A stretch of DNA of 34,526 bases from Treponema sp. (GTDB lineage Bacteria > Spirochaetota > Spirochaetia > Treponematales > Breznakiellaceae). The stretch covers positions 1-34,526 of the forward strand of contig WRJO01000012.1 of NCBI GenBank assembly GCA_009778545.1, given 5' to 3'. The notes beneath the pieces were generated by a model. That model saw nothing but the letters and a program-made list of their open reading frames with translations. It was not told where the DNA came from and did not search any database. Below are positions 10,268 through 12,742 of the stretch, piece after piece (within the stretch, counting starts at the first letter, position 1; each line of letters begins with the position of its first letter). Position numbers and translations under genes: made by a program.

Positions 10268-10356
10268 CCTACCCATTTTTGTAGGTATTTACCGGCAAAA
10301 AACAGGCAATCCTACCAGATTTTGTAGATTGTCAATGCATTTTTCCGGCGTATATT
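10268..10356 (+). promoter_or_regulatory. Promoter region A: two operator-like elements plus -35/-10
   Basis: CCTACCCATTTTTGTAGG (10268..10285), CCTACCAGATTTTGTAGA (10311..10328), TTGTCA (10329..10334)-N16-TATATT (10351..10356). Confidence 0.65.
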
Positions 10357-10404
10357 TTTGTCAAACATGTTTTCAGCATGAAAATCATTTTCAGGAGGTA
10401 TACT

Positions 10405-10476
10405 ATGAGAAAGTATACGGCGGTTTGTGTTTTCAGCCTGGTAATGCTCATTAAGGCTGCCAGCGTTTTTGTATAA
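10405..10476 (+). CDS. Candidate 23-aa hydrophobic micro-ORF (MRKYTAVCVFSLVMLIKAASVFV)
   Basis: Strong SD (AGGAGG) before ATG at 10405, stop TAA at 10474..10476; next gene has its own SD 21 nt downstream. Confidence 0.45.
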   Translation: MRKYTAVCVFSLVMLIKAASVFV

Positions 10477-10497
10477 TTGGGATACGGGAGGTATGCA

Positions 10498-11178
10498 ATG
10501 AAAAAGAATGCATTCTTTGGCGTTTGTTGTTTTTTGCTATTGTGCACACCGGTTATTGTTCGCGGGCAGGGTTTTAACGGACCGGGCGCGGATGCATCCA
10601 GGCCGGGCCAGCCGGCGGCGTTCTTTGAGCCAATTCCGGTGAGTCAGGTAAAAACCCTTCCCAAAGATTCGTGGGTGGTATTGTCCGGAAATATTGTCAA
10701 TACGCTGCCGGGGGGCAAGTACTATACATTCAGGGATTCCTCCGGGGATATTACCGTTGAAATTGAGCCGAAAGTATGGAGGGGTTTATCTGTTGAAGCG
10801 TCTGACAGGGTTACCATCAGCGGCGAAATAGAAATAAAGAAAGGGCAGGTTTCAGTCGAGGTAAAAGCCGTGACCGGGTCCGGCAGAATCAATGCCAGGC
10901 AGGGACAGGCCGTTACTGCCGCCCAGCCCATTACCGTTGATGAGGCAAAGAATCTTCCCAATGGTTCATGGGTAATAATAGCCGGAAGCATAGCCAGCTC
11001 TTTGGGGAAGGACTATTATTCATTCGGCGATGCTACAGGGGATATAACAGTCGAAATTGAACGGGATATCTGGAGAGGATTGTCGGTCGGAGTATCTGAC
11101 GTTGTTGAAATTCACGGTAAGCTGGAAATTAAAAGAGGGCTGTTCTCAATAGAAGTAGAAGCCATTCGAAAAATGTAG
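10498..11178 (+). CDS. Secreted protein with two tandem BOF (bacterial OB-fold, YgiW/YdeI-like) domains
   Basis: Signal peptide; two copies of PxxVxxxxxLPxxSWVxxxGxIxxxLxxxYYxFxDxxGDITVEIExxxWRGLSVxxSDxVxIxGxxEIKxGxxSxEVxA. SD GGGAGG before ATG at 10498. Confidence 0.85.
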   Translation: MKKNAFFGVCCFLLLCTPVIVRGQGFNGPGADASRPGQPAAFFEPIPVSQVKTLPKDSWVVLSGNIVNTLPGGKYYTFRDSSGDITVEIEPKVWRGLSVEASDRVTISGEIEIKKGQVSVEVKAVTGSGRINARQGQAVTAAQPITVDEAKNLPNGSWVIIAGSIASSLGKDYYSFGDATGDITVEIERDIWRGLSVGVSDVVEIHGKLEIKRGLFSIEVEAIRKM

Positions 11179-11200
11179 GTTTCGCGGCGGGAGTATTTTT

Positions 11201-12634
11201 ATGAGGGCATGGCTGGCTGCGGCTGTCATCAAACTTTTTCAAACAAGGGACGAACTTTCCTTTCGCAATATCAGGGGAAATTTGTGGCCCGCCCTTTTGG
11301 CCTTTCCCCTTGCCGTCATTATGGGGAATTTGCGGTACTATGACCACGGTTTCGCATTCATAGGTTTCAGATCGTCCCAATTGATGTTTTTTCTTCTGGG
11401 ACTTGGCCATCTCACCCTGGCCTTTACGCCCAGACGGTTTATCATCCCGCTCCTCCGTCTGGCGGCGCTTGCTTCCGCCGTCCTCCTGCCCTTTCTGATT
11501 TTCCTGCCGGCAGGATTGGCACAATATGTCCTTTACATGGTTTTTAAATATTTTAACGGCTTATGCGCCGCATGTGCATTTTACCTGTTCTGTTTTGTTT
11601 TGAACAATGTCGAACGCCTCGCCGGCCTTGCCCTCATTCAGCTGTACTACGGGTTTTACTATGCCACCCGTAGTATATTTCCCGCAGTTCATGCGGCAGG
11701 CGAAACGCCGGTCGGGCTTGTGGTGATGGCGGTTTTTCTGACAGCGGTTTTTTCATTCCGGGCGAAGCAGCAGTCCGGCCAAAGCCTGGAAATGAACACC
11801 GGCGGTGACGGCAGAGGCTCGGGCGTTCCCTTTGTTTTCGGTTTGGGCGTTGTTCATTACATGATCATGAGCATGAGCAATTACATCGACTGGACGGAAC
11901 ACAGTATTTCCAATTTGGCTTTTGGGCTGGGAACCGTTTTGTCTATCGTCCTGGTGATAATCATCCAACTGTTAAAAGGCCGCAACGCCCTGTACATCTG
12001 GCTCATGTTCCTGGTCTTTACTCTGTTTGGCCTTGCCGCCCTCCTGTACGATACGCCGATTAGCGTTAATTCCGGCTCTTTTGCCTACGGCCTGGGCGAC
12101 AGCCTTGGTTTTATCATCCTGTACTACCTGTGCGCCGGAGCCGTTAAGCGCAGCAGGTCGCTGCGGATGTTCAGGCTCTACTGCCTGGTGTATTTCGTCG
12201 AGCATTTTATCATTTCCGGCTTCTTTTCTTTTTACTTTTTTACCTATGACGGGCCGGACAAGGCGCTGGCTTTCGGCATTGTGCTGGTTCTGGTCTGCTT
12301 GTGCCTGCTGTTCATGCCGCTCATACAAAAAAAGCTGTTTGATGCCGACTGGACAGACGGCCTTTATCTGCGCGACATGGAGGGGTATTCGCGCCCCCTT
12401 GCAAAAACGGAAGAGATCAATGACAGGGACCGCCTGAACCTGACTCCCCGCGAGAAAGAAATTTTTACCATGCTGCTGGAGGGCATATCGCCCAAGGAAA
12501 TCGCCTTTACCCTTAAGGTCAGCTACGACACGGTGTGCTTTCACCAAAAAAACCTGTACCGCAAATTGGGCATTCAGAGCAGAATGGAACTTTTTGCCCG
12601 GTACTCGTCCGCTCAAAAAATAAAATCCGTTTAG
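11201..12634 (+). CDS. Membrane-embedded LuxR-family regulator: about 12 TM helices plus C-terminal LuxR HTH
   Basis: About 12 hydrophobic segments over the first ~390 aa, then LNLTPREKEIFTMLLEGISPKEIAFTLKVSYDTVCFHQKNLYRKLGIQSRMEL. Confidence 0.88.
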   Translation: MRAWLAAAVIKLFQTRDELSFRNIRGNLWPALLAFPLAVIMGNLRYYDHGFAFIGFRSSQLMFFLLGLGHLTLAFTPRRFIIPLLRLAALASAVLLPFLIFLPAGLAQYVLYMVFKYFNGLCAACAFYLFCFVLNNVERLAGLALIQLYYGFYYATRSIFPAVHAAGETPVGLVVMAVFLTAVFSFRAKQQSGQSLEMNTGGDGRGSGVPFVFGLGVVHYMIMSMSNYIDWTEHSISNLAFGLGTVLSIVLVIIIQLLKGRNALYIWLMFLVFTLFGLAALLYDTPISVNSGSFAYGLGDSLGFIILYYLCAGAVKRSRSLRMFRLYCLVYFVEHFIISGFFSFYFFTYDGPDKALAFGIVLVLVCLCLLFMPLIQKKLFDADWTDGLYLRDMEGYSRPLAKTEEINDRDRLNLTPREKEIFTMLLEGISPKEIAFTLKVSYDTVCFHQKNLYRKLGIQSRMELFARYSSAQKIKSV

Positions 12635-12652
12635 CCTTTTGATAATGACCAT

Positions 12653-12742
12653 CCTACCCGGTTTTGTAGGGTAAAAACGGGCTAAAACAGGCCAACCTAC
12701 CGGATTTTGTAGATAGCCAGCGCATTATTTCGTCCCTATATT
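12653..12742 (+). promoter_or_regulatory. Promoter region B: two operator-like elements plus -10, homologous to region A
   Basis: CCTACCCGGTTTTGTAGG (12653..12670), CCTACCGGATTTTGTAGA (12696..12713), TATATT (12737..12742). Confidence 0.65.

What the first reader, a model, noticed from the sequence alone, without database searches (positions are those of the whole stretch)
10268..12713. Paired operator-like elements at two promoters flanking a membrane LuxR regulator: candidate undescribed regulon
Four copies of an 18-bp element CCTACC-N3-TTTTGTAG(G/A), with CCTAC/GTAGG dyad ends, occur as two same-orientation pairs: 10268..10285 + 10311..10328 and 12653..12670 + 12696..12713. Start-to-start spacing is 43 bp in both pairs (about four helical turns). 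Similarity continues downstream (GTAGAT.G.CA..GCATT.TT.CG...TATATTTTT), so the whole promoter module is duplicated. The proximal element abuts the -35 box and is centred near -43 from the predicted start, a class-II activator position. Unit A drives micro-ORF/BOF protein/12-TM LuxR protein; unit B drives two small lipoproteins. The inference is an autoregulated envelope-sensing system whose regulator is the 12-TM LuxR protein.
Basis: partly seen in the sequence, partly recalled or inferred. Interest (0 to 1): 0.85.

Follow-up and report, generated by a model that had tools for sequence, protein, structure and literature searches.

The report
Paired operators of membrane LuxR regulators
In termite-gut Treponema, genes for envelope proteins are preceded by a pair of 18-base landing sites on the same face of the DNA helix, and the letters of these sites change in step with the DNA-reading helix of a membrane-embedded regulator encoded next door, which points to the otherwise unknown targets of this kind of regulator.

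Summary
In detail: four exact copies of CCTACC-N3-TTTTGTAGR form two same-strand pairs, each with 43-bp spacing, and they are the only exact copies in the host genome (a termite-gut Treponema MAG, 68% complete). Homologous paired-dyad promoters occur in 18 of 37 congeneric genomes and in none of 24 genomes outside the genus. The two dyads sit about 3, 4 or 5 helical turns apart, usually with phased A-tracts between them and a TATATT-like box about 21-24 bp downstream. They lie mostly beside membrane LuxR genes. The dyad letters differ between species and covary with recognition-helix residues of the adjacent regulator: K450 goes with C at half-site position 5, Q/A/T450 with T; H446, N446 and L446 go with C, T and A at position 6. 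This recurs in separate lineages and in loci not used to derive it. Best explanation: these are operators of the 12-TM (MFS-fold) LuxR protein, which activates its own BOF-luxR operon and a neighbouring lipoprotein operon. 12-TM LuxR activators are known from Eggerthella (DadR), but the paper describing them reports no operator. The signal is unknown; envelope or antimicrobial-peptide stress is only plausible. Binding has not been tested.

The parts
10268..10285 (+). distal operator dyad of unit A, CCTACCCATTTTTGTAGG
   Evidence: exact match; homologous paired modules in relatives
10286..10310 (+). A-rich linker of unit A (one A-tract at linker position 12)
   Evidence: phased A-tracts in most modules at linker positions 2-4 and 11-14; unit A keeps only the second
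10311..10328 (+). proximal operator dyad of unit A, CCTACCAGATTTTGTAGA
10351..10356 (+). -10-like box TATATT of unit A, 22 bp after the proximal dyad
   Evidence: conserved in the module alignment
10405..10476 (+). 23-codon ORF, probable signal-peptide remnant of a lost first BOF gene
   Evidence: resembles MKKYT... signal peptides of first BOF genes at orthologous loci
10498..11178 (+). secreted double BOF (bacterial OB-fold, PF04076) protein, 226 aa
   Evidence: Pfam E 7e-36; a BOF gene precedes luxR at most close orthologous loci
11201..12634 (+). 12-TM MFS-fold membrane protein with C-terminal LuxR/GerE HTH (P0001), the proposed regulator
   Evidence: GerE E 2.4e-15; AlphaFold model with 12 TM helices, pLDDT 79; Foldseek hits are MFS transporters
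12536..12550 (+). codons 446-450 (CFHQK) of the recognition helix, the proposed specificity residues
   Evidence: positions 446 and 450 covary with operator half-site positions 6 and 5
12653..12670 (+). distal operator dyad of unit B, CCTACCCGGTTTTGTAGG
12671..12695 (+). linker of unit B with A-tracts at linker positions 3 and 14
12696..12713 (+). proximal operator dyad of unit B, CCTACCGGATTTTGTAGA
12737..12742 (+). -10-like box TATATT of unit B
12812..13126 (+). small lipoprotein, TRL-like family (PF13146)
   Evidence: Pfam E 9e-13
13201..13563 (+). small lipoprotein with a Flg_new (List_Bact_rpt) domain
   Evidence: Pfam E 5e-6, at the cut-off

Best explanation
Each 18-bp dyad is the binding site of one dimer of the LuxR-type HTH at the cytoplasmic end of the adjacent 12-TM, MFS-fold membrane protein. 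Two dimers bind the same face of the DNA about 4 turns apart. The A-tract linker, which is probably bent, may bring them together at the membrane. The proximal dimer touches the -35 region, so RNA polymerase is activated from about -43. The regulator thereby switches on its own BOF-luxR operon (unit A) and the lipoprotein operon (unit B) when the MFS-like domain detects a ligand or condition. Shown by sequence: the paired modules, their helical spacing, their association with membrane LuxR genes, and the covariation of operator letters with recognition-helix residues. Inferred: binding by this protein, activation rather than repression, DNA bending, and the signal (possibly envelope or antimicrobial-peptide stress).
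For: (1) Rarity: exact copies occur only here in the genome, and the reversed control of the pair pattern gives zero hits in 61 genomes. (2) Conservation: model R1 finds the module in 18 of 37 congeneric genomes and 0 of 24 others. Of 14 genome-wide hits not used in training, 9 lie within 3.2 kb of a LuxR HTH against about 3% expected. Both hits in a genome sampled later (G062) also sit beside P0001-type genes. (3) Spacing: an open scan of 20-119 bp returns 42, 43 or 53 bp and one triple site at 34/33; 32, 44 and 53-54 bp are also seen. (4) Dimer symmetry: paired positions covary above all shuffles (0.240 against 0.118). (5) Recognition code: operator distance tracks recognition-helix distance with TM distance held constant (partial Mantel r 0.50, p 0.0003, n=17; r 0.44-0.49, p 0.014-0.026 with 10 clade representatives). 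K450 goes with C5 in all 14 K-bearing regulators, and Q or A goes with T5 in two lineages. Tests outside the fit: the G062:C7 regulator (N446, T450) has CCTATT, G062:C4 (H, K) has CTCACC, and G003 (L, K) has CCTACA/CCTGCA in 3 of 4 half-sites. (6) The sensor domain is 12-TM with an MFS fold.
Against: No binding or expression data exist. Several modules have no LuxR gene nearby (G010:C40, G033:C21, G014:C38, G008:C67, G021:C26). G010:C40 carries the HHH-type operator although no HHH-type regulator was found in that 88%-complete genome. Some P0001 orthologues (L062, L063, L070, L072) have no recognised module; L068 has only a weak one at a divergent second LuxR gene. The code holds poorly for the second, non-MFS LuxR type (L130 and L137 do not fit). 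Orthologous loci are not independent, so the nominal p-values overstate the evidence. Two site variants were re-registered by eye (L051, L061).
Confidence: 0.85

Rival explanations
1. The dyad pairs are operators of another regulator that co-controls these promoters, for example a response regulator or a second LuxR-type protein, and the 12-TM LuxR gene is merely one of its targets.
For: Some modules lie at promoters with no LuxR gene nearby. The same module also occurs beside a second class of membrane LuxR protein with an extracytoplasmic domain.
Against: Operator letters change in step with the recognition helix of the adjacent regulator, including within one clade (L069 K450 with C5; L071 A450 and G062:C7 T450 with T5). 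A third-party regulator would not predict this.
Confidence: 0.1
2. The regulator binds the pair as an autorepressor: two dimers, bridged over the bent linker, block the promoter until a ligand releases them.
For: A dyad abutting the -35 region can also exclude polymerase, and paired phased sites with bent linkers suit repression loops (general knowledge; site positions).
Against: The characterised 12-TM LuxR proteins DadR, HcdR and CadR are activators (PMC9734109). The distal site lies near -86, unit B has a poor -35, and a class-II position is typical for LuxR-type activators (own knowledge).
Confidence: 0.15
3. The repeats are a mobile or recently duplicated promoter cassette without regulatory meaning.
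For: Units A and B are similar over about 95 bp and look duplicated.
Against: Modules in other species keep dyad symmetry and helical spacing while their letters change, and they front non-homologous genes. The element is not scattered genome-wide.
Confidence: 0.02

Closest known systems
10-12-TM LuxR activators of Coriobacteriia (DadR, HcdR, CadR of Eggerthella lenta; PMC9734109)
   Same: N-terminal 12-TM domain plus C-terminal GerE HTH; gene beside its likely targets; one regulator per small local target set
   Different: Spirochaete hosts; envelope-protein targets (BOF, lipoproteins, MacA-like) instead of reductases; the paper's text has no palindrome, inverted repeat or binding motif for these regulators, whereas paired dyads and a residue code are seen here
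NarL/FixJ-type GerE HTH dimers (NarL, RcsB, DegU)
   Same: HTH aligns residue by residue with NarL (PDB 1je8); dyad operator; covarying residues lie in the recognition helix, where DegU K197, which I align with residue 446, is modelled to contact bases (PMC9263151)
   Different: Integral-membrane MFS-fold input domain instead of a phosphoreceiver; two dyads fixed at 3-5 helical turns with an A-tract linker
lux-box promoters of LuxR-type quorum regulators
   Same: CCT-N12-AGG dyad geometry and a site abutting -35 near -42 (own knowledge, not tested)
   Different: No autoinducer domain, no LuxI; recurrent second dyad upstream
BOF proteins of envelope or antimicrobial-peptide stress (YgiW/VisP, V. 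cholerae SipA; PMC6370654, PMC5636140)
   Same: Same Pfam family (PF04076); SipA expression responds to an antimicrobial peptide (abstracts)
   Different: Tandem BOF domains in an operon with a membrane LuxR and sometimes a HlyD/MacA-type adaptor

Membership tests
10-12-TM LuxR regulators (DadR type) | 10-12 N-terminal TM helices | tested here: met
   12 helices in the 6+6 AlphaFold model, pLDDT 79; MFS-fold Foldseek hits
10-12-TM LuxR regulators (DadR type) | C-terminal GerE (PF00196) HTH | tested here: met
   residues 413-464, E 2.4e-15
10-12-TM LuxR regulators (DadR type) | sequence homology of the TM domain to DadR/HcdR/CadR | not tested
   no Eggerthella sequence was compared; listed database hits with organism names are Treponema MAGs
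10-12-TM LuxR regulators (DadR type) | activates neighbouring genes in response to a ligand | not testable with these tools
   operator position is compatible with activation; needs experiment
NarL/GerE-type dimeric operators | dyad-symmetric site with compensatory changes | tested here: met
   covariation 0.240 against shuffled 0.118, 0 of 500 shuffles reach it
NarL/GerE-type dimeric operators | specificity set by recognition-helix residues | tested here: met
   top covarying HTH positions are 450, 447, 446 and 449; partial Mantel p 0.0003, 0.014-0.026 after collapsing clades; correlation, not a binding test
quorum-sensing LuxR/lux box | autoinducer-binding domain | tested here: not met
   only the GerE domain (and a weak sigma-70 region 4 overlap) is recognised by Pfam in P0001
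genome-wide regulon | element at many promoters of one genome | tested here: not met
   two promoters only in G000, with a 68%-complete assembly

The most novel reading that the evidence does not exclude
A genus-wide, undescribed regulatory system in termite-gut treponemes: many membrane LuxR proteins of two unrelated sensor designs (12-TM MFS-fold, and an extracytoplasmic domain with a single TM helix next to the HTH) share one promoter architecture. That architecture is two dyads 3-5 helical turns apart over a phased A-tract linker, fitted for membrane-bound dimers. Each regulator-operator pair is insulated from its paralogues by a simple recognition-helix code at positions 446 and 450.
Probability: 0.5. 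Interest if true: 0.82.

Novelty: new variant of a known kind. Interest (0 to 1): 0.72.

Why it matters
Integral-membrane LuxR proteins are numerous in gut bacteria. Three are genetically characterised in Eggerthella, but I found no operator described for them (searches limited to open-access text). This locus gives a concrete operator architecture, a residue-to-base code that predicts targets from sequence, and a list of envelope targets. It makes testable how a protein held in the membrane can find and activate promoters, and what termite-gut spirochaetes sense at their envelope.

Tried and rejected
The own-genome scan with two mismatches gave further sites (for example C5:34391), but these are single and unpaired, and the reversed control gives as many hits; rejected as regulon members. 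Exact-pattern hits in G032:C95, G008:C11 and G053:C20 are singletons with no pair reported by model R1; treated as chance. The weak model hit in G022:C1 (E 0.02) lies by what looks like a tRNA sequence and has poor dyads; discounted. A CCTAC-only search missed orthologues with other letters, so I switched to a letter-free search for paired palindromes and a covariance model. The residue code applied to the second LuxR class gave mixed results (L129 and L082 mostly fit, L131 half, L130 and L137 not), so I do not claim it there. A role of the element for the divergent polysaccharide deacetylase (8573-10213, -) was considered and set aside: that gene is absent from orthologous loci. I looked for papers joining LuxR, Treponema and termite; none are held.

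Full report
Observation. The four elements are present at the given coordinates with no mismatch to CCTACCNNNTTTTGTAGR. In the 1.99-Mb host assembly they are the only exact copies. The nearest relatives are Treponema MAGs whose isolate codes suggest termite guts (the host attribution is my reading). The paired form was searched across 61 genomes with up to three mismatches. It hits only this genus, and the reversed control pattern never hits.

Anatomy. Each unit consists of a distal 18-bp dyad, a 25-bp linker, a proximal 18-bp dyad and, 22-23 bp further on, TATATT. The proximal dyad is centred near -43 to -44 from an inferred start. Unit A precedes a 23-codon ORF, a secreted double-BOF protein and P0001. 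Unit B precedes a TRL-like lipoprotein and a second small lipoprotein. The 23-codon ORF matches the signal-peptide pattern of the first BOF gene at orthologous loci and is probably its remnant. P0001 is predicted to have 12 TM helices in a 6+6 arrangement followed by a GerE HTH. Its best structural matches are MFS transporters.

Relatives. P0001 orthologues (43-79% identity) occur in about half of the congeneric genomes, usually behind BOF genes. A search for any pair of similar 18-bp palindromes 20-119 bp apart, with no letters prescribed, returned pairs at 42, 43 or 53 bp in 10 loci and a triple site at 34 and 33 bp in another; a few other spacings also appeared. Modules read later show 32, 42, 43, 44 and 53-54 bp (some measured by eye on the printed sequence). 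These values cluster at about 3, 4 and 5 helical turns. In most modules the linker carries A-tracts near positions 3 and 13. The 53-bp L064 modules have a third tract near position 23, as if one helical turn had been added.

Genome-wide model. A covariance model of 15 modules matched 18 of 37 congeneric genomes and none of 24 others. Of 14 hits outside the training set, 9 lie within 3.2 kb of a GerE domain, where about 3% is expected. Several of these are orthologous promoters, so the number of independent cases is smaller. Three of the untrained hits (G008:C64, G021:C63, G010:C149) lie at the divergent promoter of a different membrane LuxR class with a long extracytoplasmic domain and one TM helix before the HTH. 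Genome G062, sampled later, has two modules and both sit beside P0001-type genes.

Who binds. Dyad letters differ between species: CCTACC in the window clade, CTCACC, CCTATA, CCTATT or CCTACT elsewhere. Paired positions change together. Operator distance correlates with recognition-helix distance even when TM-domain distance is held constant. In a scan of all HTH columns the strongest pairs involve residues 450, 447, 446 and 449 in P0001 numbering (that output numbers them two lower, and one search gives the correct numbering). Residue 450 aligns with NarL K192 and residue 446 with NarL K188 (alignment; the NarL numbering is from memory). K450 goes with C5 in 14 of 14 regulators. Q in L053/L055 and A or T in L071/G062:C7 go with T5. 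A tree of the TM domains places these in separate lineages, and L069, which keeps K450, keeps C5 inside the second lineage's clade. H446 goes with C6, N446 with T6, L446 with A6, for most half-sites. Loci outside the fit agree: G062:C7 and G062:C4 (G062:C7 is a 70%-identical relative of L071), and G003 in 3 of 4 half-sites. The DegU study models K194 and K197 of the recognition helix as contacting bases (PMC9263151). In RcsB the base contacts are K180 and S184 (PMC5829831). By my alignment these fall at positions 443, 446 and 447, so a base contact at position 450 rests on NarL from memory.

Targets. Modules precede secreted BOF proteins (window, L042, L050, L053, L055, L057, L058, L065, L074, L103, L133, L134), small lipoproteins, CsgG/LpoB-like lipoproteins and, in one genome, a sigma-70 factor. 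At L053, L055 and L057 the gene after luxR encodes a HlyD/MacA-type adaptor; at L058 and L103 the adaptor gene follows the module-driven BOF gene instead (Pfam run for L057 and L058). BOF proteins are linked elsewhere to antimicrobial-peptide stress (PMC6370654, PMC5636140; abstracts only). That makes envelope or peptide stress a fair but untested guess for the signal.

Known or new. Membrane LuxR activators with 10-12 TM helices are known from Eggerthella (PMC9734109). That paper's text contains no palindrome or inverted repeat, and its only 'operator' passages concern engineered constructs. The regulator is thus a new member of a known architecture. The paired phased operator and the residue code are new as far as I could search.

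Limits. No binding data. MAG incompleteness limits absence claims. Phylogenetic dependence inflates p-values. Site registers for L051 and L061 were set by eye.

Noticed in passing
L129, L131, L082, L137, L139: A second class of membrane LuxR: N-terminal hydrophobic stretch or signal, about 300-residue extracytoplasmic region with repetitive GG-rich segments, one TM helix, then a GerE HTH; Pfam sees only the HTH. It shares the paired-dyad promoter design at divergent promoters.
   Followed up: partly
L069, L071, L068, L137: A small protein with SFSFFC(D)xCGKEW and CPxCGxxxCDDC cysteine pairs recurs directly downstream of the module; the one tested (L069) has no Pfam match.
   Followed up: partly
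L136 (G014:C38), 2945-3914: The module stands in front of a sigma-70 family sigma factor followed by lipoproteins, suggesting a cascade.
   Followed up: no
window 25263-33610: Wood-Ljungdahl genes (RACo, RnfC/MTHFR-C-like protein, CdhD): the host is probably an acetogenic treponeme.
   Followed up: no
window 1159-3768 (-): 869-aa MalT-like LuxR protein; LuxR proteins of about 850 aa occur in most relatives.
   Followed up: no
window 8573-10213 (-): Polysaccharide deacetylase with a long repetitive low-complexity linker, divergent from unit A; not found at orthologous loci.
   Followed up: partly
P0089: A P0001 relative of 666 aa carries an additional GGDEF domain (PF00990), linking the family to cyclic-di-GMP.
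   Followed up: no
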